From positions 159,716-223,715 of the forward strand of contig NZ_JACHXA010000006.1 in assembly GCF_014191775.1 (NCBI RefSeq): 64,000 bases of DNA, in the 5' to 3' direction. The notes under the pieces were generated by a model. The model did not search any database. It had not been told where the DNA came from and was given only the letters and a program-made list of their open reading frames with translations. Made by a program: the position numbers and the translations under genes. Shown in pieces: positions 49,755 to 63,349 of the stretch. Source of the stretch: Limibacillus halophilus (GTDB lineage Bacteria > Pseudomonadota > Alphaproteobacteria > Kiloniellales > CECT-8803). Position 1 is the first letter of the stretch. The number at the start of each line of letters is the position of its first letter.

Positions 49755-50597
49755 TTATCCGGTAGCGGACTTGGAGAGCCGCTCGGTTATAACCTTTCGA
49801 CCTTCGTTCCAGCGTGCCATCGCCTCCGCATGGCGGCGCATCTCCAGTTCGCCGCAATCGACCTGCGGGCGAGCGTCGTGTTGGAAATAGCCATAGCGGT
49901 CCTCGCCCCGAACGAGCGTGGCGGAGAGCGGCACACCGCTCGTCGAACGAACGTGGGCGGGGATGTAGCTGATACCCAACCCGATGCGGCGATCTGTGGA
50001 TCGGTTCGGGCGGCTGTTGTGCAGCAGCTGCGTATGATGCAGCGACAATTGCCCTGGCCTTAGCGGCATCAGCGTGGGTGTACCTTCGTAGTCGGAAATG
50101 TCGATGGTTTGTCCGGTCTTTAGCATGTTCCCGGGTTGAAACTCGACCTTGTGGCGCGCCTGTCCACGTTTGTGTGAGCCGGGCAGGACCTCTACACAAC
50201 CGCTCTCTTCGGAGGCTTCTGACAAAGCCACCCAGGCCGTTACATGCTCCAACGGGTCAAGACCGAAATAAGTAGCGTCCTGATGCCATGAGATAAAGGC
50301 ATCAGTATTCGCCTCTTTGATCCAGATCGTTAGTTGAACCAATAGGATATCCGGGCCGATAACGTCCTCGACAGGGTCCAGCACTTCGGACGAGTGCACG
50401 ATCTCATCGATCCAGGTCTGATACAGGTGCGGTTTGAACATCAGGTTGCCGGTGATGCGGCCGCCAAGCTTTGCCTCCAGCGCCTCCAGGCGAGCCCGGT
50501 ATCCGGCGGCCTGCGCGCCCGTGAAGGCGTCAACCGGCGCCACAAATCCCTCTTCCCTGTACTGACTGACCTGCGCTTCGCTCAGCTTCCTCGTCAT
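49755..50597 (-). CDS. Phytanoyl-CoA dioxygenase (PhyH) family Fe(II)/2-oxoglutarate oxygenase
   Basis: This 280-residue oxygenase starts LSEAQVSQYREEGFVAPVDAF, a typical PhyH N-terminus. The iron ligands are visible as HQDATYFGLD (His and Asp) and the distal His in LHHTQLLHNSRPNRS; the Arg after it would bind 2-oxoglutarate. PGSHKRG is also conserved. It hydroxylates an unidentified substrate. It is the last gene of the operon that begins at 61561, 38 bp after the SDR gene. Confidence 0.88.
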   Translation of the reverse strand: MTRKLSEAQVSQYREEGFVAPVDAFTGAQAAGYRARLEALEAKLGGRITGNLMFKPHLYQTWIDEIVHSSEVLDPVEDVIGPDILLVQLTIWIKEANTDAFISWHQDATYFGLDPLEHVTAWVALSEASEESGCVEVLPGSHKRGQARHKVEFQPGNMLKTGQTIDISDYEGTPTLMPLRPGQLSLHHTQLLHNSRPNRSTDRRIGLGISYIPAHVRSTSGVPLSATLVRGEDRYGYFQHDARPQVDCGELEMRRHAEAMARWNEGRKVITERLSKSATG

Positions 50598-50635
50598 ATT
50601 CTTCTCACCCTTTCACCGTATTCTTGGTTTCTTGA

Positions 50636-51394
50636 TCACGCGGCGAACCCGCCATCCAGGCGCAGATCGGCTCCCGTCATGAACGCACTCTCCTCGCTGG
50701 CCAGATATAGCGCTGCAGCGGCAATCTCATCAGCAGTCCCCAGACGGCCAAGAGGGTGCGCGGGGGCGAGCGCCTTCTCCGCAGCTTCGCGTCCTCCGTA
50801 CCGCCGCTCTACGCGCCCGGTCATGATCGCGCCAGGCGACAGGCTGTTGACCCGAATGCCTTCCGCGGCATGATCAAGCGCCATGATGCGGCTGAGGTGG
50901 ATCAACGCCGCCTTCGTCGCGCCGTAGGCGGCACGGCCCGGTCGGGCCCTTTGGCCCAATTGGGACGCGACATTGATGATGACTCCACCGCCTGCTTTAC
51001 GCATGTGAGGGATGGCCTCGCGGCTCAACAACATGGCGCCGGTCAGATTGACGGCCAGCGCACGATCCCAATCCTCCAAATTGATATCGACAACGGTGGC
51101 GTGGGCCGAAACCGCCGCCGCGTTGTTGACCAACAAGTCGACGCCCCCCATCGCTTGGGCTGCGGCCGCAACCGCGCTCTGCACATCCGAAGCGCGGCTG
51201 ATATCGCACACTATGGGAGGTCCGGCTCGCTCAGGTGCGATCACCGAAACTTCCGCGACAGCTTCGGTGAGTCCCTGGCGATCGTGATCCATACCGATGA
51301 CCTGAGCGCCTTCGCGCAGGAACGCCGCCATGATCGCCTTACCGATATCGCCGGCTGCGCCGGTCACGATGGCTCGCTTTTCACTCAGCCGCAT
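50636..51394 (-). CDS. Short-chain dehydrogenase/reductase (SDR)
   Basis: This 252-residue NAD(P)-dependent oxidoreductase has the cofactor motif TGAAGDIGKA, NNAAAV, the catalytic Ser in NVASQLG and Tyr-Lys in YGATKAAL, all intact. An Asp after the second strand (GMDHDRQG) suggests NAD preference. Substrate unknown. Its ATG 51394 is preceded by GGGGGAGG and overlaps the COG0523 gene by 14 bases. It would oxidise an alcohol produced in the same pathway (inference). Confidence 0.9.
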   Translation of the reverse strand: MRLSEKRAIVTGAAGDIGKAIMAAFLREGAQVIGMDHDRQGLTEAVAEVSVIAPERAGPPIVCDISRASDVQSAVAAAAQAMGGVDLLVNNAAAVSAHATVVDINLEDWDRALAVNLTGAMLLSREAIPHMRKAGGGVIINVASQLGQRARPGRAAYGATKAALIHLSRIMALDHAAEGIRVNSLSPGAIMTGRVERRYGGREAAEKALAPAHPLGRLGTADEIAAAALYLASEESAFMTGADLRLDGGFAA

Positions 51395-52406
51395 CGGGTT
51401 TGCCTCCCCCCAGGCACTTATCGATCAGTTTCTCGATCTTCTTTTTCACCAGTCCCCTGCCAATCAGAACGAGCCCCAAACGAGCGCCGCTGGAGGCATG
51501 CTTGGTCGCCTCGGGAAGTGCGAAGACGTGCTGCACTCCCTGAATAACCATTGGCTGCGCCTCGCCCGCGAACTTCAGTAAACCCTTGACGCGAAGCAAA
51601 TCCGCCCCGTATCGGCTCTGGAAAGCTTCCACCAAGGCTGCGTACCCCGGCCAATCGACGGCCTGCTCAACAGGAACGAACAAGGTCTCAAAGTCCGATT
51701 CCTCATGGCCTGAATGCACGTGATGAAGGCCCTCATGAGACGCTTGCCAGGCCAAAGCGCTGCTTGGCTCGATCTGATCCAGCGCGTCAACCGGATCCAG
51801 ATCTCCGGCGGAGCTCACCAAAACCCCGGCGCCCGGGTTCATTTCCTTTAAGAAGCCCTGGATTTGCGCAATTCGTTCGGCGGGTACGGCATCGGCCTTC
51901 GTGACGATCAAGCGATCGGCGAGCGCAACCTGCTTGCGAACCTCCTCAAAACCGTCTTTCTGATCCAGAAAGAAAAGGCCATCCACGCAGGCGATGACAC
52001 CGGCCAGGTGATAGCGGGCCGCCAACAGGCGGTCGGTCATCAGCGTATGCATCAAGGGCGCCGGATCGGCGATACCCGTGGTCTCGACGACGACCCTGGA
52101 GAAGCCTGGAATTTCGCCGCGCGCGCGGCGATGGAAAAGGTCGGTTAGAGTTTCCGCGAGGCTGCTATTGAGGGTACAGCATAGACACCCTGAATCGAGA
52201 AGAACTACATCGTCCTCCTCGCCTTCGGTGACCAGCAGATGATCGAGACCGACCTCGCCAAACTCGTTGACGATAACCGCCGTATCGGCGAAGGCCGGAG
52301 CCCGCAGCCAGCGCGCGAGCAACGTCGTCTTACCGCTTCCCAAGAACCCCGTCAGGATGAATAGCGGCGTCGCCTGCGGATCGCTAGATGATGGCCGACC
52401 ACTCAT
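51381..52406 (-). CDS. COG0523 (CobW/ZNG1-like) GTPase metallochaperone
   Basis: This 341-residue GTPase has Walker A GFLGSGKTTLLARWL, the family metal motif GCLCC (CxCC), Walker B/switch VVVETTGIADPAPL, and the guanine motif VTKAD. A CobW C-terminal domain follows (about 235-330). The family delivers zinc or other metals to enzymes. It lies directly between a metal-dependent amidohydrolase/amidase pair and an iron oxygenase, so it may load one of these (inference). Confidence 0.88.
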   Translation of the reverse strand: MSGRPSSSDPQATPLFILTGFLGSGKTTLLARWLRAPAFADTAVIVNEFGEVGLDHLLVTEGEEDDVVLLDSGCLCCTLNSSLAETLTDLFHRRARGEIPGFSRVVVETTGIADPAPLMHTLMTDRLLAARYHLAGVIACVDGLFFLDQKDGFEEVRKQVALADRLIVTKADAVPAERIAQIQGFLKEMNPGAGVLVSSAGDLDPVDALDQIEPSSALAWQASHEGLHHVHSGHEESDFETLFVPVEQAVDWPGYAALVEAFQSRYGADLLRVKGLLKFAGEAQPMVIQGVQHVFALPEATKHASSGARLGLVLIGRGLVKKKIEKLIDKCLGGGKPDAAE

Positions 52407-52415
52407 GGCAACGCC

Positions 52416-53144
52416 TCATCCTGCGCCGGGATTACTTTCCCGCACGGGCAAAGCTTCCAGATACGCGGCGACCTCGTCCGTTGGAATCACATCCGCATAC
52501 TTGCAGTTAAGATCAAAGAGGTTCATCGCATGGCTCGATTCGAAGCGATCGAAGGCCGTTTCCTCGGGGATGATGGCTTTAAAGTTGTATGAGTAGGCAT
52601 CCACCGTCGTCGCCCGCAGGCATCCGGAAGTCGTACAGCCCGTCAGGATCAAGGTATCCACGTCCAGGAAATTCAGGTGGCTCATGAAGAGCGTACCGAA
52701 GAAAGCCGAAGGTTTGCGTTTTCCGATCAAAATGTCCTCGGGCCGTGGTGCCAGCGGCTCCACCGTCTGTGTGGCATGCGTACCCGCAACACTTGTTTTC
52801 TCCGCGCCGCGATGGTTTTTGCCGACCTGAACGCCGCTGTCGATCATGTCCGGACGCCGTTCGCTCTGGGTATAGAAGATCGGCAGATTTTTCGCGCGCG
52901 CGATTTTCATGAGGCGCTCGATATGCGGAACCGCCTTCCATCCAGCCTCACCACAATGGGTGCGGTACTGCTTGACGCCGTCTTCCTGCGACTGACCCGG
53001 AGCGTCGCCGCAGAAATTGTACTGCACATCGATGATGAAGAGCGCCGGGCGTTTGCCGAATCCACCGCGCTTTCCGTATCCCGCAAGCTGATAAATACGC
53101 TTGTCTTTCTCAGTCAAAAACCGGTCCCAGATTCTTTCGCTCAC
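52416..53144 (-). CDS. Isochorismatase-family amidohydrolase (half-amide / N-carbamoyl amidase candidate)
   Basis: This 242-residue cysteine hydrolase has the triad Asp (ALFIIDVQYNF), Lys (GKRKPSAFF) and Cys (TGCTTSGCLRAT). The family includes N-carbamoylsarcosine amidohydrolase, maleamate amidohydrolase (NicF), RutB and nicotinamidase. The start is GTG 53144 with AGGAG 7 bases upstream; an in-frame TTG upstream lies inside the previous gene. It starts 10 bp after the stop of the cyclic amidohydrolase gene, suggesting consecutive steps: ring opening, then removal of ammonia or the carbamoyl group. Confidence 0.85.
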   Translation of the reverse strand: MSERIWDRFLTEKDKRIYQLAGYGKRGGFGKRPALFIIDVQYNFCGDAPGQSQEDGVKQYRTHCGEAGWKAVPHIERLMKIARAKNLPIFYTQSERRPDMIDSGVQVGKNHRGAEKTSVAGTHATQTVEPLAPRPEDILIGKRKPSAFFGTLFMSHLNFLDVDTLILTGCTTSGCLRATTVDAYSYNFKAIIPEETAFDRFESSHAMNLFDLNCKYADVIPTDEVAAYLEALPVRESNPGAG

Positions 53145-53154
53145 AGATAGTCTC

Positions 53155-54528
53155 CTAGCGTTGGTGCTTGGGCAGGCGCGGCAGGTAGTGGCCGGTGCCG
53201 TCAATCGCCGCGTCCGTCAATTTTCCGTTCTCGGCAAGCAGGCGCCCGCGCGAGAAAGTCATGGTCGGCCAACCGCGCAAACTGCGCCCCTCGAATGGCG
53301 AATAGTCGGAATAGGACAGCAAATTCGCGGGATCGACGACCCGTTCCAGGTCAGGATCGACGACGACGATATCGGCGTCCGCGCCGGGCGTCAGCGTGCC
53401 CTTGCCGTGCATATTGTAGGTACGTGCGGCCGTTCGACTGGCCACCATAGCCAACACCTCCGGCGGCACCTGCCGCTGATGGTAGCCGGCCTCCATGAGG
53501 ATCGGCAGGAAGGTCGCCACGCCCGGAAGGCCGTTCGACGCCGACCAAACGGACTTTTCCTTGGTCGCACGCTTGCGCGGCACGTGATCGGTTCCAACGG
53601 TCGTTACGGTACCGTCCAGAATACCCTCCCAGAGCGCATCGATATCGTCCTGACTTCGGAGTGGCGGATTGGCCTTTGCCAACACACCCGCCGGGTCGTG
53701 CTTGTCGGTGAAAAGGTAGTGGGGGCAGGTCTCGACGTACATCGGCGGTCCACCGGCATAGCGGTGACGTCTGACCTCATCCAGCGCTTCCTTGGAGCTC
53801 AAATGGACAATGTTGACGGCACAGCCCGTCTTGCGGGCGAAGTAGCAGACCCGGTGCACATTCTCGGCTTCCAGGAAATCCGGGCTTTGCTCATCCCAAG
53901 CCACCAGGTCGTCTCGGCCCTCGGCACGCAGTGGATCGCGCAGATAGGGAATCACTTCGACGTTCTCGCAATGAACGCCCAGGATGGCCCCGGGCAAGGC
54001 CGCCGTTTCGCGCATAGCGGCGAAAAGCAAGCCATCGTCGATGTCCGTGAATCCCTTCGCGAGCCCCGCCTGCCCCTTGTACATCATGTACATTTTGTAG
54101 GAGCTGACACCGAAGCGCTCATAACATTCCGCCAATGTTTTGACGTGCAGGTCATTGGTCAGCCCGAGGTGATACGAGAAATCGATCACGCTCTGCGATT
54201 CGGCGCGCGTGCGTTCCGCATCGAAGCCCTCACGAAAATCCTTGGTGCGATAAAAAGAAATAACCGACGTGACCCCACCCAGCGCCGCCGAGCGTGATTC
54301 CGTGCGGAAATCATTCTCCGGATCGCCAAAGCCGAAATGAACATGGGGATCGATGATGCCGGGCATGATCCATTGCCCCTGGCAATCGATACTGCGGGCA
54401 GCATCGAATTCCTCGCCAAGCGCCGCCGTCAGCACGATCTTGCCGTCTCGGATTCCCAAGCCGCCTGGTAGCGCCCCTTCGCCTGGGAAAACCAACAGGC
54501 CGTTCTTGAGGAACAGGTCGAGTTTCAT
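53155..54528 (-). CDS. Hydantoinase/dihydropyrimidinase/imidase-type amidohydrolase
   Basis: This 457-residue metalloenzyme has the complete cyclic amidohydrolase site: HxH in IIDPHVHFGFGD, the carbamylated Lys in SSYKMYMMYKG, His in GVHCEN, His in NIVHLSSKE and Asp in GTDHVP. It therefore opens a cyclic amide, ureide or imide ring (hydantoin, dihydropyrimidine, allantoin or imide; substrate not set by these motifs). It abuts the NTF2-like gene (54529) with no spacer and precedes the isochorismatase-type amidase. Confidence 0.92.
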   Translation of the reverse strand: MKLDLFLKNGLLVFPGEGALPGGLGIRDGKIVLTAALGEEFDAARSIDCQGQWIMPGIIDPHVHFGFGDPENDFRTESRSAALGGVTSVISFYRTKDFREGFDAERTRAESQSVIDFSYHLGLTNDLHVKTLAECYERFGVSSYKMYMMYKGQAGLAKGFTDIDDGLLFAAMRETAALPGAILGVHCENVEVIPYLRDPLRAEGRDDLVAWDEQSPDFLEAENVHRVCYFARKTGCAVNIVHLSSKEALDEVRRHRYAGGPPMYVETCPHYLFTDKHDPAGVLAKANPPLRSQDDIDALWEGILDGTVTTVGTDHVPRKRATKEKSVWSASNGLPGVATFLPILMEAGYHQRQVPPEVLAMVASRTAARTYNMHGKGTLTPGADADIVVVDPDLERVVDPANLLSYSDYSPFEGRSLRGWPTMTFSRGRLLAENGKLTDAAIDGTGHYLPRLPKHQR

Positions 54529-54915
54529 TCAGTTTCGCCCTCCACGCGCCAAACGATGTTCGCCGGAATCGTTCCAGACCCACTGTGACTGGATTTTGCC
54601 ATCGCGTATCTCGAAACGATCAATAAACCGAATGCCGTCGAACGCTTCTCCGTCCGGCCAGACCCCATGGAGCGTTCCATAGCAGTAGGCGATTGTAGCA
54701 TCGCCCGCAGGGCAAAGATCGACACCCTCGATGGTCTTGCCGATCCGCTGATAGCGGCCTTTCGAATTGGTCACCAGTTGCTCGAGTGACGGCGGGCGCT
54801 TGCCGCCCGGGAACAGCATAACCATGTCCTCGGCGAGGAATGCCTTTGCCCGAGGCAAATCCCGCGCCTCGACGGCGGCCAAATAATCCCTGGCGATCTT
54901 CTCAGCGCTTTCCAC
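54529..54915 (-). CDS. NTF2-like / SnoaL-type small protein
   Basis: This 128-residue protein has the cone-shaped NTF2 fold pattern: ARDYLAAVEARDLPRAKAFL, then VMLFPGG, and the strands DRFEIRDGKIQSQWVW. Such proteins can be isomerases, hydratases or ligand binders. No catalytic motif of a known enzyme is evident. It lies between the importer genes and the amidohydrolase gene, 6 bp from the former and 0 bp from the latter, so it probably belongs to the pathway. Confidence 0.75.
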   Translation of the reverse strand: MESAEKIARDYLAAVEARDLPRAKAFLAEDMVMLFPGGKRPPSLEQLVTNSKGRYQRIGKTIEGVDLCPAGDATIAYCYGTLHGVWPDGEAFDGIRFIDRFEIRDGKIQSQWVWNDSGEHRLARGGRN

Positions 54916-54921
54916 GACGCC

Positions 54922-55713
54922 TTATCCTTTCTGTCCAAATACCCGATCAAGCCCAAAGGCCCGTTCCAAGCCGACCACCAGCAAGTAGGCAAAGATAATG
55001 AGCAGCGTCGAAACGGCCGCGATCATCGGATCAATTGCGAATTCTATGTAGGTGAAGATACGGATCGGCAGGGTGGTCACGTCCGGCCCGGTGAGGAAGA
55101 TGGAGATCGTCACCTGATCGAACGAAACGATGAAAGCAAATATGATGCTGACCAAAATTGCTGGAGCAATGGCCGGCATCACGACCTGGAAGAGAACGCG
55201 AAGCGGCTTCGCACCCAGGCTCTCCGCCGCTTCCGCCAACGACGTATCCAACCCGACGATCGCCGCCCCGACGGTTCGAATGACATAGGGCAAGGTGATC
55301 AGCGTATGACCGATCACCAGACCAAGCATGTTCGAGGGAATTTCAAGCAACCTGATGAACTGAAACAGTGCCACGCCGGTAACCACCGTCGGTAGGATCA
55401 GGGGGGACATCAGGAATGCCCTGAAGAACTCGCGTCCGACAAAATTCTCCCGCGCCATGGCGATGGCCGCTATGGTCCCCAGCAATGTCGCCGCCACCGT
55501 CGCTGCAACGGCAAGAACCAGGGAATCTATAAAGGATCGAAGGAAATCCTCACGCCCCATGAGTTTTTCGTACCACTGAAGGGTAAAGCCCTCCGGCGGG
55601 AATGTGATGTGCGGTGCCTCGGTGAAGGAACCGGCGACGATGATAACCAGCGGACCTAGCAGGAAAATCAGCGTGCAAGTCGTCCAAAGGGCAAGAGCGG
55701 TGCGTCCGATCAT
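54922..55713 (-). CDS. ABC transporter permease (PotC-like)
   Basis: This 263-residue inner-membrane permease has six helices and the EAA coupling loop LAEAAESLGAKPLRVLFQVVMPA. It belongs to the spermidine/putrescine-type importers, but that superfamily also serves other cations, sugars and organic acids. ATG 55713 has AGGAGG 6 bases upstream; the longer frame to 55743 adds a poor N-terminus. It pairs with the permease at 55715. Confidence 0.9.
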   Translation of the reverse strand: MIGRTALALWTTCTLIFLLGPLVIIVAGSFTEAPHITFPPEGFTLQWYEKLMGREDFLRSFIDSLVLAVAATVAATLLGTIAAIAMARENFVGREFFRAFLMSPLILPTVVTGVALFQFIRLLEIPSNMLGLVIGHTLITLPYVIRTVGAAIVGLDTSLAEAAESLGAKPLRVLFQVVMPAIAPAILVSIIFAFIVSFDQVTISIFLTGPDVTTLPIRIFTYIEFAIDPMIAAVSTLLIIFAYLLVVGLERAFGLDRVFGQKG

Positions 55714-55714
55714 G

Positions 55715-56641
55715 TCACACCTCCTGCCGGAAAAGGCGCGCATGAAGCAGTATAACGATCATGTTCATGGCCAACAGAACGAAGACGAGGGCCGAGCCGA
55801 GCGGCCAGTTCACGGAAAAAGTAAACTGCTCGTAGATCAGCGTGCTGACCGTCGAAACGTGACCGCCACCCAATAGCGCCGGGGTGACGAACGCGCTAAT
55901 CGAAAAGCAAAACACCAGGATTGAACCGGCGCCGACACCCGCCCAGGTCAAAGGCCAGACAACATCGGTGAAGATACGCAACACCGAAGCGCCCAGGCTC
56001 TCGGCGGCCTCGATAACTTGCGACGACAAGCTCTCCATGACACTGACGAGTGAAAGCACCATGAACGGCAGAGTGACATGGCCCAAGCCCACAACGACGG
56101 TCCAAAAGTTGTTACTAAGGGGCAGTGGCGTTCCAACCAACCCCCAGTCCAAAAGCCAGCCGTTGATAATGCCGTTATCTCCCAATAAGGCCAGCCAGCC
56201 GTAAGTGCGAACGACCAGGTTGATCAGCAAAGGCGATAAAACCGCGGCCAGCAGAAAGCTCTTCATACGCGGGCCGCAGCGGGCGATCTGCCAGGCGATG
56301 GGGTATCCCACAATCAAGGTGAAGAAAGTCACAGCCAGGCCCAGCCAAATGGTCTCGCCGACAATCTGCAGATAAAAGGTGTCGGATAGCAGTTTTGCGT
56401 AATTGTCCAACGCGAAGGCTTCGCGAAACACAAACATCGCGTCGTACTTATTGAAGCTCATACGCAAGAGATAAAGGTAAGGAAGCACCAGTCCCAGAAT
56501 GTAGAGCATCGCGATGGGCGAAAGCTGGAAGAACCGTCGCCAAAGGGTCCGCCCACGCGCGGCGGCCTCCAGGCTTGGAGCTTCGGAAGAAGTCTGTCCC
56601 CCCTCCGTAGTTCCATCAACGGTAGTCGGCTCTCGCACCAT
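55715..56641 (-). CDS. ABC transporter permease (PotB-like)
   Basis: This 308-residue permease has a polar N-terminal tail of about 45 residues and then six membrane helices; the coupling loop is VIEAAESLGASVLRIFTDVVWPL. It forms a heterodimer with the PotC-like protein. ATG 56641 has GGAG 8 bases upstream; an in-frame start at 56698 lies inside the preceding gene. Its stop is one base upstream of the next ATG. Confidence 0.9.
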   Translation of the reverse strand: MVREPTTVDGTTEGGQTSSEAPSLEAAARGRTLWRRFFQLSPIAMLYILGLVLPYLYLLRMSFNKYDAMFVFREAFALDNYAKLLSDTFYLQIVGETIWLGLAVTFFTLIVGYPIAWQIARCGPRMKSFLLAAVLSPLLINLVVRTYGWLALLGDNGIINGWLLDWGLVGTPLPLSNNFWTVVVGLGHVTLPFMVLSLVSVMESLSSQVIEAAESLGASVLRIFTDVVWPLTWAGVGAGSILVFCFSISAFVTPALLGGGHVSTVSTLIYEQFTFSVNWPLGSALVFVLLAMNMIVILLHARLFRQEV

Positions 56642-56673
56642 CGCGTCTACTCCAACTCTATTCTCAGACCCGT

Positions 56674-57696
56674 TCAGCCCGTGAAGGCCTTGTTCCACTG
56701 CTCAAGCAGTTCCGACTTGCGCGGGTTCAAGACGGACCAATCCGCAAAGCGCAGGCTGTTGACCTTGTCGGCGCCATAAACATGCTTGGCCGCAAGATCC
56801 GCATCCATGGTGACCGTCGTGTTGGACGGGCTGTACAGATTGGATACGAAGGCATCCTGATACTCAGCGCCCATGACCCGGTTCGCCCAATCGAGCGCTG
56901 CGGCCTTGTTGCTGGTGTTCTTCGGAATCTGCACACCGGTACGCATGCCGTAGGTGCCCTCTGAAGGCGTGGTGAAGGCGACGCTGACACCGTCGTCCAT
57001 CAGAAGCTGGATCCGATGACGATAGAAGAGAGCGGCATCCATCTCACCTTGCTGGAACTTGCCGAAACCGTCGGTGACGCCTTTGTAGATCTTCATGTTG
57101 GGCAAGTCTTTGAGCGCTTGGAAGCCCGGGTCGAGATTCTCGACACTCCCGCCATTCAACTCCGCTGCAATCTGCAGGAAGATCATGCCGTAGGTCGAAG
57201 AAATATGCGGCACACCGACCGTGATCCCATCTTGCCATAGATCGGCCCAGGACTTCGGTGCGTCCATCTTCTCGGGGTTGTAAGCGCAGGTAAACTCGTA
57301 GACCGTACTGGTGTACTGCGGGATGGCCGGTGGCTTACAGATATCATAGACATTAGCGATATTGGGTGTAGCGCCAGTGTCCATCGGTTCCCAAAGGCCT
57401 GCCGTCTCACCGAAAATCGCCTCGTCTTCGTTGACGTAGATCAGATCGAACGGCGGATTGGCCTTCGACGCTATGATCTTCGGGATAAACTTGGAACCCC
57501 AACCCAGTTCCTTCTGGACCGTGACATCATTGGCCGACTCAAACGCCGGAATAACACTGGCATCCAAAATTTCTGAGTAAAGGCCGCCAAAGGTGCCAAT
57601 CACAAAGTTAGAGGCGGCAAAAGCAGGGCGCAGCGTCGTCAAAGCGGTAGCCGCCGCCGCACTGCCTGCAAGAAAATCTCTCCGAGAAACGTTCAT
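56674..57696 (-). CDS. ABC transporter substrate-binding protein (PotD-like, Tat-type signal)
   Basis: This 340-residue periplasmic protein begins MNVSRRDFLAGSAAAATALT, a twin-arginine (SRRDFL) signal, cleaved near residue 27. The mature part is a type II solute-binding fold with FVIGTFGGLYSEILDASVIPAFE, and a C-terminal ADWSVLNPRKSELLEQW. PotD-family patterns are there but the residues that bind polyamine amines are not recognisable, so the ligand is open. ATG 57696 is preceded by GGAGGA at 7 bases. Confidence 0.88.
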   Translation of the reverse strand: MNVSRRDFLAGSAAAATALTTLRPAFAASNFVIGTFGGLYSEILDASVIPAFESANDVTVQKELGWGSKFIPKIIASKANPPFDLIYVNEDEAIFGETAGLWEPMDTGATPNIANVYDICKPPAIPQYTSTVYEFTCAYNPEKMDAPKSWADLWQDGITVGVPHISSTYGMIFLQIAAELNGGSVENLDPGFQALKDLPNMKIYKGVTDGFGKFQQGEMDAALFYRHRIQLLMDDGVSVAFTTPSEGTYGMRTGVQIPKNTSNKAAALDWANRVMGAEYQDAFVSNLYSPSNTTVTMDADLAAKHVYGADKVNSLRFADWSVLNPRKSELLEQWNKAFTG

Positions 57697-57740
57697 AAAT
57701 CTATCCTCCGCTGTCGTGGTTAACCGAAAATTCGTCCGAA

Positions 57741-58799
57741 TCACCGTGCTTCCATCACTTTGCAACGCGCGGCATCGGCTCGGGCTATCACCCTGGCTCC
57801 GACCGCCACACCCTCGGCTTCGCCCGGTGACAGCAAAGCCTTGATCACTCCATCCCTATAGTTGGCCATGACCTCAACATAGAGGCCGAGATAACGGTGC
57901 GAGATCACCTCCAGACCCTCGGTGCCGGCGGTAGGCTCCAGCCTGATGTCCTCGGCCTGTACAAAGACAGTGACGTCCTCGTCGGCTCCCGTGCCCGGCG
58001 GCTGACCAAGCGAAAAGTCGCAACCCGCCCCAAGGTCGATTGCGGTCTTTCCGTTCTCGCCTGCTAGGACCCTTCCTTTAAGCACATTGCCACTGCCGAT
58101 GAACTCGGCAGCCCAGGGAGTCCGGGGCGCTGTGAAAATCTCCTTTGGTGTGCCGAGCTGCTCCAGCTCGCCGTCGCGCATGATCGCAATGCGATCAGCC
58201 ATGGCCATCGCCTCTTCCTGGTCGTGAGTCACAAAGACCGCCGTCACGCCCAGTCGCTTTTGCAAGAGTTGCAACTCAGTCTGCATCTGGATGCGGAGCT
58301 TCTTGTCGAGCGCACCCAGAGGCTCATCGAGCAATAGAATGTTGGGCTCGATCACCAGGGCTCTGGCCAGCGCCACCCGCTGCTGCTGCCCGCCGGAAAG
58401 CTGGCGCGGTTTGCGGTCGGCAAACTGCCCTAGGCCAACCATGTCCAGCGCCCGCTTGACGCGATCGTTGATCTCCGAACCGGGCACGGCGCGGCATTTC
58501 ATGCCGAAGGCGACGTTCTCCGCCGCCGTCATGTGCGGAAAGAGTGCAAAGTGCTGAAACACCATGCCCAGGTTGCGCTCGCGCGGCTTCAAGCGCAGCA
58601 CGTCTTGCCCACCAATCTTTATGCTGCCTTTACGCGGGTGGACAAATCCGGCGATGGACCTGAGCAAGGAGGTTTTCCCACAACCCGACGGTCCGACAAG
58701 AGCTAGAAAATCGCCTTCGCCGATTGAAAGGTCGACACCGCGCAGCGCATGAAACGCGCCATACCAAAGATGCAGATTGTTGATTTCCAGCGAACTCAC
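57741..58799 (-). CDS. ABC transporter ATP-binding protein (PotA-like)
   Basis: This 352-residue ATPase has Walker A GPSGCGKTSLLRSI, the signature LSGGQQQRVALARAL, Walker B ILLLDEPLGALD and the switch His in VTHDQEEAM. A TOBE/OB regulatory domain fills residues about 245-345. It powers the importer encoded downstream at 54922-57696. Its ATG overlaps the stop of the aconitase-like gene by four bases (ATGA), joining the enzyme and the importer in one transcript. Confidence 0.93.
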   Translation of the reverse strand: MSSLEINNLHLWYGAFHALRGVDLSIGEGDFLALVGPSGCGKTSLLRSIAGFVHPRKGSIKIGGQDVLRLKPRERNLGMVFQHFALFPHMTAAENVAFGMKCRAVPGSEINDRVKRALDMVGLGQFADRKPRQLSGGQQQRVALARALVIEPNILLLDEPLGALDKKLRIQMQTELQLLQKRLGVTAVFVTHDQEEAMAMADRIAIMRDGELEQLGTPKEIFTAPRTPWAAEFIGSGNVLKGRVLAGENGKTAIDLGAGCDFSLGQPPGTGADEDVTVFVQAEDIRLEPTAGTEGLEVISHRYLGLYVEVMANYRDGVIKALLSPGEAEGVAVGARVIARADAARCKVMEAR

Positions 58800-61561
58800 G
58801 TTGCCGTGCCTCCATTCGGATGATGATCTGGCCCCCCAGCGGCGCTCTTCAGAAAGTCCTTGAGCACCGAGGCAAATATTCCCCCGTCTTCCAACAAGCG
58901 CCGCTCGCTGTCTCCCGCCAACACCGGTCGTACGGTGAAGGTGACAACCCTGCCGTCCGCCTTCTCCGCCACGACCTCGACCGGGTTGCCGCTTTGGACA
59001 CTCGTGGCGATCCCTGACAGCGTGAAAATCTCGCTGCCATCCAGGCCCAGCAAGCGCCAGCCGATGCCGGGCTCGAAGGCCAAGGGCAGAATGCCCATGC
59101 CGACCAGATTGGAGCGGTGAATGCGCTCGAACGATTCTGCTATTACGGCTTTCACGCCCAGCAGAGCCGGGCCTTTAGCCGCCCAGTCACGGCTGGACCC
59201 CATGCCATAGTCGCGACCGGCCAATACGATCATCGGGGTTCTCTCCCAGCGGTACTGCCGGGCCGCTTCAAAGATCGGCATTTCCTCGCCGTCGGGATAC
59301 TTCCGGGTAAAACCACCCTCGCGGACACCTTGCATCAGATTCTTGATGCGGGGATTGGCGAAGGTCGCGCGCATCAGGACTTCATGATTGCCCCGCCTTT
59401 GCGTATAGGCATTGAAATCACGTTCCTTCACGCCCTGGTCGGCCAGATACTGCCCGGCGAGACTGCTTGGAGAGATTGCGCCGGAAGGCGTCACATGATC
59501 GGTCGTGAGGGAGTCGCCGAAAAGACAGAGGGCGCGTACGTTGAGCAAACTGTCAGGCAACGCCCTTTCCAACGTTTCCTTCGCAGCGTCGAAGAATGGC
59601 GGCCGAAGCAAGTAGCTGGACGTTTCGGGCCACGCAAACAGTGGCCCTTCAGGCGCTTCAAGGTCACGCCACAACGCAGTTCCCTCATAGAGTGTCGCAT
59701 AGTTCTCGCGATAGAGTTCGGGTCGACCGACGTGAGCGACAAGCGCCTCGACTTCCGCGTCCGAAGGCCAGATATCGTGCAGGAACACCGGTTGCCCGTT
59801 GTCGGCCTGGCCCAGGGGTTCTACCTGAGGATCAAGATTGATACGCCCGGCCAAAGCGTAGGCAACCACCAACGGCGGCGATGCGAGATAACTTGCACGC
59901 ACTTGGGGGTGGATGCGGGCCTCAAAGTTTCGATTGCCGGAAAGGATTGCAGCGAGAACCGCGCCTTCCTCCTCTGCCGCAGCGGCCAAAGCCGGTGCGA
60001 TCTCGCCAGACTTTCCGCTACAGGTAGTGCAACCGTAACCGACGACGTGAAAACCCAACGCTTCGAGATCGTCAATCAACCCGCTTTGGGCGAGATAGCG
60101 CGTGACAACGCGCGAACCCGGCGCCAGCGAGGTCTTCACGTGCCCCGGCACGCTCAATCCCATGCGCCTGGCTTTGCGGGCCAGAAGCCCGGCGGCCAGC
60201 ATGACCGAGGGGTTGGAAGTGTTCGTGCAAGACGTAATCGCGGCGATCGCCAAAGTTCCGTGCGGCGTGGCAGTGCTCTTGGAAGCCGCAGCGAAGCCGC
60301 CGTCTTCCTTCGACTTGGCCAAGCTCGCGTTAAAATCCGCGGCAGCGGCGGAGAGCGACCGACGGTCCTGCGGGCGGCGCGGGCCGGCCAAGCAAGGCTC
60401 GGCCTCAGACACATCAATCTCGATGATCGCGCTATATTGGGGGACTGGTGCGTCTTCCTCACGGTAAAGTCCGCTTGCCTTCGCGTACTCCTGAACCAAG
60501 GCAATCTGCTCATTGCTTCTGCCGCTCTGCTCTAGGTAGGCAATGGTCTGGCCGTCGATCGGGAAAAAGCCGCAGGTTGCTCCATATTCGGGCGCCATGT
60601 TCGCCAATGTTGCGCGCTGCGGCACGGTCAGCGCTGCTGCCGCCTCGCCGAAATACTCAACGAAGTCACCGACTACACCGACCGACCGCAGTTTCTCAGT
60701 GACCAACAACACGAGATCCGTCGTGGTCACGCCTTCACGCATCTTTCCGGTGAGCCGTACACCCACGACACGAGGCAGCTTTACCATGTACGGGCGCCCC
60801 AGAAGGGCCGCTTCCGCCTCTATACCGCCGACCCCCCATGCCAGCAGACCCAGGGCATTGACCATGGGGGTATGGGAGTCGCAACCAAGGACGAATTCCG
60901 GGAACACCACCTCACCATCGGGACCGGATGCGCGACCGACGACGTTTGAAAGCCGCTCAAGATGTATTTGGTGAATGATGCCCATCCCTGGCGGCACCAC
61001 CCGCAGGCTTTTGAAGGCTCCTTGCGCCCATTTGAAGAACCGGTAGCGCTCGGCGTTGCGCTCGTATTCGCGCCGCTCGTTATAGGCTGCGGCTTCCGCC
61101 GTGCCGGCGCGATCAACGATCAAGGAGTGGTCAATTATCAAATCAACGGGAATGACGGGCTCGACTCCGTCAATAGGCAAACCTTCTTCCGCCAGTGCAT
61201 CGCGAAGCGCCGCCAGATCCATCAGCGCCGGAAGCCCGCTGGAATCCGGCAGGACAATGCGCGCGACCCGTAAGGGAACCGTGCAATCCTCCGGCACGCC
61301 ATTCCAGCGCAAAAGCGCCTCCAGCGCCGCGGCGGCGTCGCTATCTTCCTCTTCTGCGCGCGCTACGTTCTCAAGCAGAATGCGAAGGGAATAGGGAAGC
61401 GTACTGATCGCGGCTTCCTGAAGCCGCCGCAAGTCAACGAAACGGCACGCCCCAAAATCCCCGCCGAGGTCCTGTTTCGCCACGGCGACCACCCCACCCC
61501 TTTCCTTTAGAAAGGACGTCCAGGGCACTGTAATGTTTCCTGCTGAGCGACTGCTCGACAT
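58796..61561 (-). CDS. Aconitase-family hydratase (AcnA-type paralogue)
   Basis: This 921-residue protein has the whole AcnA architecture: iron-sulfur cluster Cys in AITSCTNTSNPS (near 445) and GYGCTTCSGKSG (near 508-512), the swivel domain with YGMGSSRDWAAKG and AVIAESFERIHRSNLVGMG. The loop after the third Cys reads SGKSG instead of the IGNSG I expect in aconitase A, a change next to the cluster and substrate. It heads an 11-gene operon and faces a PrpB/dimethylmalate-lyase-type gene across a shared promoter region. I therefore call it a probable pathway hydratase rather than the housekeeping aconitase. ATG 61561 follows GAGG by 5 bases. Confidence 0.85.
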   Translation of the reverse strand: MSSSRSAGNITVPWTSFLKERGGVVAVAKQDLGGDFGACRFVDLRRLQEAAISTLPYSLRILLENVARAEEEDSDAAAALEALLRWNGVPEDCTVPLRVARIVLPDSSGLPALMDLAALRDALAEEGLPIDGVEPVIPVDLIIDHSLIVDRAGTAEAAAYNERREYERNAERYRFFKWAQGAFKSLRVVPPGMGIIHQIHLERLSNVVGRASGPDGEVVFPEFVLGCDSHTPMVNALGLLAWGVGGIEAEAALLGRPYMVKLPRVVGVRLTGKMREGVTTTDLVLLVTEKLRSVGVVGDFVEYFGEAAAALTVPQRATLANMAPEYGATCGFFPIDGQTIAYLEQSGRSNEQIALVQEYAKASGLYREEDAPVPQYSAIIEIDVSEAEPCLAGPRRPQDRRSLSAAAADFNASLAKSKEDGGFAAASKSTATPHGTLAIAAITSCTNTSNPSVMLAAGLLARKARRMGLSVPGHVKTSLAPGSRVVTRYLAQSGLIDDLEALGFHVVGYGCTTCSGKSGEIAPALAAAAEEEGAVLAAILSGNRNFEARIHPQVRASYLASPPLVVAYALAGRINLDPQVEPLGQADNGQPVFLHDIWPSDAEVEALVAHVGRPELYRENYATLYEGTALWRDLEAPEGPLFAWPETSSYLLRPPFFDAAKETLERALPDSLLNVRALCLFGDSLTTDHVTPSGAISPSSLAGQYLADQGVKERDFNAYTQRRGNHEVLMRATFANPRIKNLMQGVREGGFTRKYPDGEEMPIFEAARQYRWERTPMIVLAGRDYGMGSSRDWAAKGPALLGVKAVIAESFERIHRSNLVGMGILPLAFEPGIGWRLLGLDGSEIFTLSGIATSVQSGNPVEVVAEKADGRVVTFTVRPVLAGDSERRLLEDGGIFASVLKDFLKSAAGGPDHHPNGGTAT

Positions 61562-61586
61562 ACTTGCCTCATGCTTCGTCAAGCGC

Positions 61587-61616
61587 AAGGTAGCCAAGGA
61601 TTTTAGGAAGTGTCAA
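61587..61616 (-). promoter_or_regulatory. Promoter of the aconitase-importer operon
   Basis: On the minus strand TTGACA (61616-61611) is followed after 18 bases by TACCTT (61592-61587), about 25 bases before ATG 61561. The -35 box lies inside the dyad AGTGTCAACACT, so a bound regulator would block RNA polymerase. Confidence 0.45.
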
Positions 61617-61620
61617 CACT
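61609..61620. promoter_or_regulatory. GntR-type operator 1 (aconitase side)
   Basis: AGTGT and ACACT are inverted arms around CA. The core TGTCAACA matches the TGTNNACA form of FCD/GntR operators and is the inverse of operator 2 (TGTTGACA). It overlaps the -35 box of the aconitase promoter. Confidence 0.5.
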
Positions 61621-61628
61621 AATAGGGT

Positions 61629-61642
61629 CATAATGCATTATG
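61629..61642. promoter_or_regulatory. Perfect 14-bp palindrome between the divergent promoters
   Basis: CATAATGCATTATG is its own reverse complement. It differs from the TGTNNACA operators and lies 9 bp from operator 1. It could bind a second factor or be chance in an AT-rich gap. Confidence 0.3.
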
Positions 61643-61686
61643 GTACAATTAAGTAGGAGCGGCAAAAAGTACCCACAGTAAAACCA

Positions 61687-61715
61687 TTGACCATCGTAGC
61701 ATGGGTCGGTAATCA
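61687..61715 (+). promoter_or_regulatory. Promoter of the gntR-lyase operon
   Basis: TTGACC (61687-61692) and TAATCA (61710-61715) are 17 bases apart. The predicted start near 61722 falls at operator 2 (61723-61732). The gntR ATG is at 61746. Confidence 0.5.
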
Positions 61716-61722
61716 TTAAAAA

Positions 61723-61732
61723 CTGTTGACAG
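61723..61732. promoter_or_regulatory. GntR-type operator 2 (regulator side)
   Basis: CTGT and ACAG are inverted arms around TG; core TGTTGACA is the reverse complement of operator 1's TGTCAACA, 105 bp away. It covers the predicted transcription start of the regulator, which suggests autoregulation. Confidence 0.5.
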
Positions 61733-61745
61733 TTAGAGTTGAGCC

Positions 61746-62417
61746 ATGAACGTCGATACTCCTCAAAGCACACTGGCGGAACAGGCATTCGAACAGATAT
61801 TCGACCTCATCCTGACGGGGGAGCTCCCCTTGGGCGGAATCGTCAATGAGGCCAATCTGGCGCAGCGCTTTTCGATCAGCCGCGGCCCCGTTCGCGAGGC
61901 GGTACAGCGCCTCCAAGGCCTGCGGCTCGTTACCCGCGAGCCCTACATGCGCGCACGGGTCGTACAGCTTTCCGGGCGCGATTTGGTGGAAATATTTCAA
62001 CTCCGCCAAGGTGTCGAAGGGATGGCTTGCAGATTAGCTAGCGAGGCCATGTCGGATACAGACCTGCAACAGCTTCTCGACGATTTGGAGCAATCGCGGA
62101 ACGGCCAGGGTGCGACACCTGAGATCCTCGATATCCATGTGCGCATTGCCAAGGGCAGTGGCAACAAGCGTATCGTCAGCCTGCTGTGCGGAGATCTCTA
62201 CCACCTAATGCGGATTTACCGTTTTCGCTCGGGGTCAGAGCCGGGACGGCGAGGTAAAGCCTTCGAGGAGCACTGGCAGATCGTGAGAGCAATGCGCTCG
62301 CGCGACCCCGATCTTGCCGAATCGCTGATGCGCGCGCACATCGGGCGGGCGACAGAGACTTTGTTGGCGTCTCTCAATGATATCGAGGCTCCCTTGCGCC
62401 TCGTCACCGAAACGTAA
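61746..62417 (+). CDS. GntR family regulator, FCD (FadR-like) subfamily
   Basis: This 223-residue DNA-binding protein has the GntR winged helix-turn-helix in residues about 10-75 (NLAQRFSISRGPVREAVQRL), then the all-helical FCD ligand domain (about 85-215; FQLRQGVEGMACRLA, and metal-site-like His in DIHVRIAKGS and FEEHWQIVRAM). FCD regulators usually respond to organic acids and repress catabolic genes. It is divergent from the aconitase-importer operon and lies 32 bp before the lyase gene, so it likely controls both. Confidence 0.93.
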   Translation: MNVDTPQSTLAEQAFEQIFDLILTGELPLGGIVNEANLAQRFSISRGPVREAVQRLQGLRLVTREPYMRARVVQLSGRDLVEIFQLRQGVEGMACRLASEAMSDTDLQQLLDDLEQSRNGQGATPEILDIHVRIAKGSGNKRIVSLLCGDLYHLMRIYRFRSGSEPGRRGKAFEEHWQIVRAMRSRDPDLAESLMRAHIGRATETLLASLNDIEAPLRLVTET

Positions 62418-62449
62418 GGGTTCACCAAGAAAAGAGATGGAAAGCTTTC

Positions 62450-63349
62450 ATGACTAAAACCAAACGCCTGCGTGATCTGCTTGCCGCCGATGGCATTCTC
62501 GTTTCACCGGGTGTCTATGACGGTTACAGCGTCCGCCTTGTCGAGCAGATGGGCTTCAAGACCGCCTGCACAACGGGCGCGGGCATGGCTAATTCGCGGC
62601 TGGGTGTTCCCGATGTCGGTATCATGGGGCTTTCCGACAATGTCGAGGCCTGTCGCATGATTGCGCGCAGCGTCGACATTCCCGTCATGGCGGATGCCGA
62701 TACGGGGTACGGCAGCCCCGTCACGGTGTTCCACACGGCCCGCTATTTTGAGGAATCGGGTGTCGCAGGGATCAACATCGAAGACCAGGTCAATCCCAAG
62801 CGTTGCGGCCACATGCAGGGCAAGGAAGTGATTGATGCTCGCGAGATGGCCCGGAAGGTAGAGGCCGCTTGCGACGCCCGGCGCGACGATGATTTCGTCA
62901 TCCTCGCCCGCACCGATGCTATTGCCGTCGAAGGGCTGGAGGGCGCCATTCGCCGCGCCAAACTCTATGCCAAAGCGGGCGCGGATCTGATTTTCGCCGA
63001 CGCGATCGCGACCGAGGATCAAATCAAGCAGCTCGTTGATTCCGTTGATGTGCCTGTTTCGGTCAATATGGGCTTTGGCATCCGGGCACGGCCCACCACG
63101 CCGCTAATCTCCGTCAAACGCCTGGCCGAGTTGGGGGTCAAGCGCGTGACCCTGCCACGCATGCTCCCGGCGGCTGCGATCATGGCGATGAAGCAGGCGC
63201 TCCAAATATTTCAGGATGCGGCCCAAGCGGGCGAAACCGTTGACCGCCGCGACCTGCTCGTCGGTATCGATGACATTTGGGAGCTGATCGGCCAACCCCA
63301 GGTCAAGGAGCTGGAGAAGCGCTACATGACCCTGGAGGGTATCGGCTGA
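62450..63349 (+). CDS. Isocitrate lyase/PEP mutase superfamily lyase (PrpB or 2,3-dimethylmalate lyase type)
   Basis: This 299-residue TIM-barrel enzyme has the superfamily motifs ADADTGYGSP (metal site), GINIEDQVNPKRCGHMQGKE with the lyase signature KRCGH (catalytic Cys), and ILARTDAIAVEGLEGAI. The Cys and length fit 2-methylisocitrate lyase or 2,3-dimethylmalate lyase, which split a hydroxyacid into pyruvate and a carboxylic acid. The loop CGHMQGKE is closer to the dimethylmalate lyase/oxaloacetate decarboxylase side than to PrpB (CGHRPNK in E. coli, from memory). Follows gntR by 32 bp and ends before a terminator. Confidence 0.85.
   Translation: MTKTKRLRDLLAADGILVSPGVYDGYSVRLVEQMGFKTACTTGAGMANSRLGVPDVGIMGLSDNVEACRMIARSVDIPVMADADTGYGSPVTVFHTARYFEESGVAGINIEDQVNPKRCGHMQGKEVIDAREMARKVEAACDARRDDDFVILARTDAIAVEGLEGAIRRAKLYAKAGADLIFADAIATEDQIKQLVDSVDVPVSVNMGFGIRARPTTPLISVKRLAELGVKRVTLPRMLPAAAIMAMKQALQIFQDAAQAGETVDRRDLLVGIDDIWELIGQPQVKELEKRYMTLEGIG

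What the first reader, a model, noticed from the sequence alone, without database searches (positions are those of the whole stretch)
49755..63349. A compact catabolic regulon joining an imidase-type hydrolase, an amidase, an aconitase-like hydratase and a dimethylmalate-lyase-like enzyme
Seen: eleven minus-strand genes (61561 to 49755) with spacings from -14 to +44 bp, divergent from a GntR/FCD regulator and an ICL/PEP-mutase-superfamily lyase. Known: cyclic imides are opened by hydantoinase-family imidases to half-amides and then hydrolysed by half-amidases; maleamate amidohydrolase is an isochorismatase-family enzyme; in Eubacterium barkeri an aconitase-family dimethylmaleate hydratase is followed by 2,3-dimethylmalate lyase of the PEP-mutase/ICL superfamily. 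Inference: this operon may take up a substituted cyclic imide or ureide (for example an alkyl maleimide from tetrapyrrole breakdown), open it, deamidate it, hydrate the maleate and split it to pyruvate plus a short acid. The PhyH oxygenase, SDR and NTF2-like protein would process side chains. I know of no described pathway with exactly this set.
Basis: partly seen in the sequence, partly recalled or inferred. Interest (0 to 1): 0.8.

Follow-up and report, generated by a model that had tools for sequence, protein, structure and literature searches.

The report
Conserved imide-breakdown gene module
A four-enzyme gene module that stays together in scattered alpha- and betaproteobacteria, often with the same repeated DNA motif in front of its genes, is predicted to open a nitrogen-containing ring (likely a maleimide, the kind of fragment left when chlorophyll and heme fall apart), strip off the ammonia and split the remaining acid into ordinary metabolites.

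Summary
The operon is real: eleven tight minus-strand genes, divergent from a GntR/FCD regulator and an ICL/PEP-mutase-family lyase. Its core (cyclic amidohydrolase, CSHase/NicF-like amidase, AcnA paralogue, lyase, regulator) recurs in 29 loci, near-duplicates kept: amidase 29/29, aconitase 28/29, lyase 27/29, regulator 25/29; all are 0 of 16 beside other cyclic amidohydrolases. Amidohydrolase, amidase and aconitase each form one supported clade. The aconitase clade has Pro (19/19) where housekeeping copies have Gln (7/7), at a site recalled as substrate-binding; the lyase pocket differs from PrpB. One locus has a LeuCD-type hydratase instead of AcnA. A shared operator, ASTGTYRACAST, occurs twice in the window's divergent promoter; its core lies upstream of module genes in 18 of 25 loci with the regulator and in 0 of 4 without. 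Best reading: imide, half-amide, aconitate-type acid, hydroxy-acid, 2-oxoacid plus short acid. The substrate is unproven; a carboxyalkyl-maleimide (haematinic-acid type) is the leading guess, helped by HemC genes in 3 of 29 clusters.

The parts
58796..61561 (-). AcnA-family hydratase paralogue (Acn); predicted to hydrate the maleate/aconitate-type acid
   Evidence: TIGR01341 1091 bits vs cut-off 945; in a 100/100 group of cluster proteins apart from housekeeping AcnA; Pro at residue 105 where housekeeping copies have Gln, Fe-S and GSSR motifs kept
57741..58799 (-). ABC transporter ATPase (PotA/PhnT type)
56674..57765 (-). ABC transporter substrate-binding protein (SBP_bac_8 type; likely start 57696)
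55715..56698 (-). ABC permease (PotB type; likely start 56641)
54922..55743 (-). ABC permease (PotC type; likely start 55713)
54529..54915 (-). NTF2/SnoaL-like small protein
   Evidence: linked in 13 of 29 loci
53155..54528 (-). cyclic amidohydrolase (AHase), predicted imide-ring hydrolase; conserved DHVPRKxxTK and metal-ligand-type motifs (roles recalled)
   Evidence: searches (no equivalog cut-off met; 16 loci plus window), clade 100/100
52416..53204 (-). isochorismatase-fold amidase (CSH), CSHase/NicF relative, predicted half-amidase; likely start 53144 or 53117
   Evidence: clade 99/97
51381..52406 (-). CobW/COG0523-type GTPase, possibly a metal chaperone for the amidohydrolase (inferred)
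   Evidence: linked in 11 of 29 loci
50636..51394 (-). SDR oxidoreductase (peripheral)
   Evidence: linked in 6 of 29
49755..50597 (-). PhyH-family oxygenase (peripheral)
   Evidence: linked in 2 of 29
61609..61620 (.). operator copy 1, AGTGTCAACACT
   Evidence: core motif upstream of module genes in 18 of 29 loci
61722..61733 (.). operator copy 2, ACTGTTGACAGT
61746..62417 (+). GntR/FCD regulator, predicted to bind the operator
   Evidence: linked in 25 of 29
62450..63349 (+). ICL/PEP-mutase-superfamily C-C lyase, PrpB/DML-like with remodelled pocket

Best explanation
The operon is predicted to be a catabolic module that would take up a carboxylated cyclic imide and likely degrades it in four steps, each inferred from enzyme family: the amidohydrolase would open the imide to a half-amide, the CSHase/NicF-like amidase would release ammonia to give an aconitate-type (substituted maleate) acid, the AcnA paralogue would hydrate it, and the lyase would split the product into a 2-oxoacid and a short acid. 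A GntR/FCD regulator probably controls it through the operator ASTGTYRACAST. Shown: gene content, conserved linkage, dedicated clades, residue changes and operator sequences. Inferred: every reaction, uptake of the substrate, metal delivery by CobW, and regulator binding. The likeliest imides are carboxyalkyl-maleimides of the haematinic-acid type, which would give 2-methyl-homo-cis-aconitate and then pyruvate plus glutarate (or the products of the other hydration regiochemistry).
For: Linkage in 29 loci against 0 in 16 controls. Single clades: Acn 100/100 (the one row in it labelled housekeeping, L094, is the Gluconacetobacter cluster gene itself), AHase 100/100, CSH 99/97. Another AcnA-like gene besides the cluster one in 7 of 7 genomes searched. 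Residue 105 is Pro in 19/19 cluster Acn versus Gln in 7/7 housekeeping; it aligns with the Q of 'ILQDFTG' in IRP1, a substrate-binding Gln by recall. The lyase keeps PrpB's catalytic residues (roles recalled) but has E188D, T212G, L234S/T, A239L and R241A/G in 18 of 18 cluster loci compared (window included; L009, the LeuCD locus, differs). L009 has LeuC/LeuD-type genes in the hydratase slot, and MmgE/PrpD genes stand beside distant relatives. TTT transporter genes are linked in 15 of 29 and an FAD_binding_2 flavoprotein in 11 of 29. Conserved basic residues in AHase (DHVpRKxxTK), CSH (YRTHCG) and lyase (NMGFGIRxRPTTP). Operator core upstream of Acn, GntR or lyase in 18 of 29 loci, which is 18 of the 25 with the regulator and 0 of the 4 without; 55 hits in 787 kb versus 2 in 293 kb of control DNA; also ahead of relocated GntR and lyase genes, TctC, FAD and AHase genes. 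Haematinic acid was found in leaves (PMC7318184, passages read).
Against: No substrate or activity is shown. The amidase scores higher against N-carbamoylsarcosine amidohydrolases (113 and 108 bits) than against NicF (72 bits, shorter alignment), which fits a ureide too. Seven loci with the regulator, including the nearest relative L004, lack the operator core upstream of Acn/GntR/lyase (two of them, L005 and L018, have it before TctC). The flavoprotein is best matched by flavocytochrome c and misses the TcuA (tricarballylate dehydrogenase) cut-off (139 vs 369 bits), so it is weak support for a tricarboxylate. The transporter differs between loci (Pot-type ABC 10 of 29, TTT 15 of 29), so one common substrate is not certain. 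HemC occurs in only 3 of 29; an additional copy is shown only for Azospirillum, in G1286 it is the only HemC found, and Shinella's chromosome was not searched.
Confidence: 0.5

Rival explanations
1. A cyclic ureide (hydantoin-type) pathway: AHase opens a hydantoin, CSH removes the carbamoyl group, and the amine left is converted by other enzymes before hydratase and lyase act.
For: AHase is in the hydantoinase/allantoinase superfamily; CSH's best solved relatives are N-carbamoylsarcosine amidohydrolases; a class-III aminotransferase is linked in 8 of 29 loci.
Against: 21 of 29 loci lack that aminotransferase (other deaminating enzymes were not searched for); no equivalog cut-off for hydantoinase or allantoinase is met; the hydratase and lyase need a carboxylic acid, which an amidase on a half-amide gives directly.
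Confidence: 0.2
2. Simple alkyl maleimides (methyl, dimethyl, ethyl-methyl), cleaved by a dimethylmalate-lyase-like enzyme.
For: Same enzyme logic; L009 pairs a LeuCD-type hydratase with a lyase that scores best with petal-death protein (203 bits; PrpB 199, dimethylmalate lyase 162).
Against: TTT genes and the conserved basic residues suggest extra carboxylates, though only indirectly; the window lyase is not closer to DML than to PrpB; in the leaf study read, haematinic acid was found but alkyl maleimides were not detected.
Confidence: 0.13
3. Citrazinate (isonicotinate route): AHase opens citrazinate to aconitamate, CSH gives cis-aconitate, aconitase feeds the TCA cycle (pathway recalled, not found in the library).
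For: Citrazinate's keto form is a cyclic imide and its recalled product is an aconitate; the AcnA family cut-off is met.
Against: Molybdenum hydroxylases expected for the upstream steps are linked in 1 of 29 loci, against 2 of 16 controls; plain cis-aconitate would need neither a dedicated, altered aconitase nor a PrpB-like lyase.
Confidence: 0.07

Closest known systems
Fungal nicotinate pathway HxnM/HxnN (Aspergillus nidulans, PMC9304392, passages read)
   Same: a cyclic imide is opened by an imidase and the half-amide is then deamidated to release nitrogen
   Different: HxnM is related to the cyclic imide hydrolase of P. putida and the PgdA/PuuE-type proteins, HxnN to FAAH-type amidases; here a hydantoinase-superfamily enzyme and a cysteine (isochorismatase-fold) amidase; no hydratase/lyase tail in the passages read
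Methylcitrate cycle back end (PrpD/AcnD or Acn plus PrpB)
   Same: aconitate-type hydration followed by a PEPM/ICL-superfamily lyase; PrpB catalytic residues kept
   Different: no citrate-synthase-like gene in the operon; the lyase is below the prpB cut-off (261 vs 354 bits) with an altered pocket; fed by amidohydrolase and amidase
Eubacterium barkeri dimethylmaleate hydratase and 2,3-dimethylmalate lyase (recalled)
   Same: aconitase-family hydratase then PEPM/ICL-superfamily lyase
   Different: there a LeuCD-like two-subunit hydratase (recalled); here an AcnA-family enzyme, except L009; the solved dimethylmalate lyase is no closer than PrpB
Hydantoin/creatinine degradation (hydantoinase plus N-carbamoyl amidohydrolase)
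   Same: same two enzyme superfamilies in series
   Different: separate clades in trees with few anchors, curated cut-offs not met, plus hydratase and lyase

Membership tests
D-hydantoinase / dihydropyrimidinase | NCBIfam TIGR02033 curated cut-off (393.25 bits) | tested here: not met
   273.5 bits; E. coli HyuA groups with 15 control-type amidohydrolases, not with the module clade
Allantoinase AllB | TIGR03178 cut-off (357.85 bits) | tested here: not met
   257.7 bits; E. coli AllB outside the module clade, on a long branch
Dihydroorotase | TIGR00857 cut-off (279.05 bits) | tested here: not met
   211.3 bits
Imidase (functional class) | hydrolysis of a cyclic imide | not testable with these tools
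   needs enzyme assay
Isochorismatase-fold cysteine amidases (CSHase/NicF group) | Asp-Lys-Cys triad (named from recall) in aligned positions | tested here: met
   iiDvq, gKrkpsaf and ttsgC align with CSHase chains; with NicF the aligned stretch covers only Lys and Cys
Biuret amidohydrolase / RutB | curated cut-offs 370 / 377.95 bits | tested here: not met
   41.1 and 35.7 bits
AcnA-type aconitase (sequence family) | TIGR01341 cut-off 945 bits; CTNTS, GCTTC and GSSR motifs | tested here: met
   1091 bits; motifs present
AcnA-type aconitase acting on citrate | substrate-binding Gln (recalled as Q86 of IRP1) | tested here: not met
   Pro in 19 of 19 cluster proteins, Gln in 7 of 7 housekeeping proteins; activity itself not tested
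Methylisocitrate lyase PrpB | TIGR02317 cut-off 354.4 bits and PrpB pocket residues | tested here: not met
   261.3 bits; E188D, T212G, L234S/T, A239L, R241A/G; D58, D85, D87 and KRCGH kept
2,3-dimethylmalate lyase | closer to DML than to other lyases | tested here: not met
   DML 155 bits, PrpB 160.5, petal-death 157.5, best 2-methylisocitrate lyase chain (9hra) 174.5
One regulon under the GntR/FCD protein | conserved operator upstream of module genes | tested here: met
   18 of 29 loci, i.e. 18 of 25 with the regulator and 0 of 4 without; some relocated genes carry it too; binding itself untested

The most novel reading that the evidence does not exclude
This is the bacterial terminal pathway for tetrapyrrole carbon and nitrogen. 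Carboxyalkyl-maleimides such as haematinic acid, and pyrroles of the porphobilinogen type oxidised to them (class-A flavin or luciferase-type monooxygenase, HemL-like transaminase, aldehyde dehydrogenase and HemC in some clusters), are opened, deamidated, hydrated and split into central metabolites; with the acetate/propionate pyrrole pattern the split would give 2-oxoglutarate plus succinate.
Probability: 0.15. Interest if true: 0.88.

Novelty: new variant of a known kind. Interest (0 to 1): 0.62.

Why it matters
Chlorophyll is made and degraded on a 10^12 kg per year scale; haematinic acid was found in leaves in the study read, which did not detect alkyl maleimides but cites earlier reports of maleimides and haematinic acid in senescent leaves and lake sediments (PMC7318184, passages read). 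I found no paper on how bacteria mineralise those imides in the open-licence library searched. A compact set of four enzymes with a defined operator makes the question directly testable, and could give new imidase and half-amidase biocatalysts.

Tried and rejected
Citrazinate was my first idea from the imide-to-aconitate logic; it was down-weighted because molybdenum hydroxylases are linked in only 1 of 29 loci (2 of 16 controls) and because of the altered Acn and lyase pockets. Paper searches for citrazinate, imidase clusters, dimethylmaleate, haematinic acid and pyrrole-to-maleimide routes listed no paper whose title or abstract start describes this gene set; one search returned zero papers. 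HemC as chance: it is found in 3 of 29 clusters (L038, L079, G1286). In Azospirillum the genome has a second HemC and the cluster copy follows the lyase, SDR and ABC genes on one strand behind an operator, overlapping the permease by 4 bp if its TTG start is used, about 11 bp apart with the next ATG (sequence). In G1286 it is the only HemC found, and for Shinella only the plasmid was searched. The link stays suggestive. A plain methylcitrate-cycle lyase was rejected by cut-off and pocket; the window genome has only one other match to this lyase, 33% identical. No structure prediction was run.

Limits and rows dropped: L019 (archaeal, 34% identity, no other module gene above threshold) was left out of the context table; L006 was replaced by L079/L080 (same place). 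Near-duplicates L008, L015, L017, L018, G960 and G1035 were left out of the trees but kept in the counts; the eight aminotransferase-type loci are thus about four independent ones. Thresholds were chosen by hand. Control stretches are 11 to 20 kb, some module stretches up to 40 kb; the 16 controls are a hand-picked part of the matches listed and also show LeuC 1, MmgE/PrpD 1, Pot-type ABC 2 and molybdenum hydroxylase 2 of 16. The residue comparison uses one housekeeping AcnA for each of 7 genomes; it leaves out 5 divergent AcnA-like rows (Q or H at that column), and L078 and the second Shinella copy, which fall outside the cluster clade. Cluster lyases and aconitases of the nine G-genomes were not. 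The operator was found de novo as a dyad shared by 7 of 22 upstream regions; the highest sharing in 200 mononucleotide shuffles was 3. Within the window alone two copies are not rare (11 of 100 shuffles reach two hits at up to one mismatch); the case rests on conservation.
Full report
OBSERVATION. The spacings of -14 to +44 bp are reproduced with sensible start codons. Families were confirmed with NCBIfam and Pfam. The window lies at G000:C6:159716-223715 of a 3.48-Mb genome in 18 contigs, and the contig ends where the window ends, so what follows the lyase beyond 64000 is unknown.

CONSERVATION. A scan of genome contigs with the amidohydrolase (AHase) gave 16 loci. In these, CSH is linked in 29, Acn in 28, the lyase in 27, GntR in 25, TTT transporter genes in 15, NTF2 in 13, CobW in 11, an FAD_binding_2 flavoprotein in 11, Pot-type ABC in 10, and an aminotransferase-ALDH-flavin monooxygenase-EutA set in 8. 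Near-duplicates (two Advenella, three Gluconacetobacter, three close G-genomes) are counted. Of the two loci without the lyase, G1299's contig breaks off inside GntR, and the L067 stretch holds only about 10 kb on each side. In 16 control loci, CSH, Acn, lyase, GntR and CobW are all 0. The module is rare and patchy; each tally here includes the centre genome itself. At E<=1e-85, which also admits the more distant subgroup, AHase relatives occur in 7 of 385 genomes of the window's class and 4 of 399 genomes of the Parapusillimonas order. At E<=1e-120 they occur in 10 of 397 genomes of the Rhodoplanes order, 1 of 82 of the Azospirillum order, and 1 of 1 in the family of G156. Among 58 genomes nearest the window's own, its own included, the best listed match outside it is 36% identical.

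DEDICATED ENZYMES. Seven of seven module-bearing genomes searched have at least one other AcnA-like gene. In the tree, cluster Acn proteins form one 100/100 group of 20 rows; the one row there labelled housekeeping (L094) is identical to the Gluconacetobacter cluster gene; two rows labelled cluster, L078 of the distant subgroup and a second Acn of Shinella, fall outside. Residue 105 of the window protein is Pro in 19 of 19 cluster proteins and Gln in 7 of 7 housekeeping ones; residue 517, three places after a Cys of GCTTC, is Lys versus Asn in the same sets. The Gln aligns with the 'ILQDFTG' Gln of IRP1, which I recall as substrate-binding; CTNTS, GCTTC and GSSR are kept. AHase forms one 100/100 clade apart from E. 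coli HyuA, AllB and the controls, and CSH one 99/97 clade; functional anchors in both trees are few and some sit on long branches. The lyase keeps the PrpB catalytic residues but changes five pocket positions in 18 of 18 cluster loci compared, L009 apart, and has a conserved NMGFGIRxRPTTP stretch four residues longer than PrpB's (one search covers 15 loci plus the window).

HYDRATASE REPLACEMENT. In L009 AcnA is absent and LeuC- and LeuD-type genes (homoaconitase/IPMI family) stand there, with AHase 63%, CSH 76%, CobW 47% and the lyase 44% identical. In a more distant subgroup (15 loci, AHase 36-43% identical) CSH is linked in 11, CobW in 11, MmgE/PrpD genes in 6, the lyase in 5 and Acn in 1. 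Where MmgE/PrpD genes stand, as in the Methylobacterium and Variovorax plasmids, they may fill the same slot; that is inference.

REGULATION. A dyad search upstream of Acn found a motif shared by 7 of 22 regions, against at most 3 in 200 shuffles. The core STGTYRACAS lies within 330 bp upstream of Acn, GntR or the lyase in 18 of 29 loci; its density is 55 in 787 kb against 2 in 293 kb of control DNA. All 18 are loci with the linked regulator (18 of 25); the four loci without it (L009, G1000, G960, G1035) have none there. The window has two perfect 12-bp copies at 61609-61620 and 61722-61733. Elsewhere the motif stands before relocated GntR or lyase genes (L010, L011, G1066, G1018), before TctC (L005, L018, L010, G1109), the FAD gene (G1165), and before AHase and the SBP gene that precedes a luciferase-type gene in Azospirillum. 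Seven loci with the regulator, including the nearest relative L004, lack it upstream of Acn, GntR and lyase.

MECHANISM. The commitment is: imide, half-amide, aconitate-type acid, hydroxy-acid, 2-oxoacid plus short acid. The order follows from enzyme chemistry, not from any assay. CobW-type GTPases are known as metal chaperones (recalled), so a role in metallating AHase is possible. That the acid carries an extra carboxylate rests on indirect signs: AcnA, LeuCD and MmgE/PrpD relatives, TTT transporters and conserved basic residues. The linked flavoprotein matches the tricarballylate dehydrogenase model only below its cut-off (139 vs 369 bits; flavocytochrome c is better), so it adds little. 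Haematinic acid (methyl and carboxyethyl maleimide) would fit a methylisocitrate-lyase-like last step and was found in leaves. HemC genes in three clusters (the Azospirillum and Shinella ones pass the hemC cut-off; Azospirillum's genome has a second HemC) and an aminotransferase related to HemL in eight (the Shinella one below the hemL cut-off) are the only direct hints at tetrapyrroles.

WHAT IS KNOWN. The nearest described imidase-amidase pair read here is fungal HxnM/HxnN, of other families. No listed paper describes this combination in the searches, as far as titles and abstract starts show; the library holds open-licence papers only, and of the listed ones I read passages of three. Verdict: a real, conserved and probably co-regulated catabolic module with a plausible but unproven imide substrate.

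Noticed in passing
L079:3823-4752 (-), L038:22417-23349 (-), G1286 cluster (L114:6046-7191 +): HemC (hydroxymethylbilane synthase) genes in three of the related clusters; in Shinella and G1286 each is convergent with a HemL-like aminotransferase gene, in Azospirillum it directly follows an ABC permease gene.
   Followed up: partly
G000:C1:551589-552953 (L066): The window genome has a second, 41-42% identical AHase next to a dipeptide-type ABC transporter (named by eye) and an MmgE/PrpD gene, without CSH or Acn in the 20 kb read.
   Followed up: no
L066:17333-19808: ORFs that read like CofE, CofD and CofC (coenzyme F420 synthesis; named by eye, no family search), not far from a luciferase-type oxidoreductase ORF, in the window's own genome.
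   Followed up: no
window 47532-48590 (-): A DpgA-type (type III polyketide-synthase-like) ketosynthase just outside the operon; 131.5 bits versus a DpgA cut-off of 425.
   Followed up: no
L119:13422-13955: A 177-aa protein between the aminotransferase and the flavin monooxygenase has no Pfam match; similar ORFs stand there in two related clusters (by eye).
   Followed up: partly
L009:8213-9978: LeuC/LeuD-type hydratase genes in place of AcnA in an otherwise equivalent module.
   Followed up: yes
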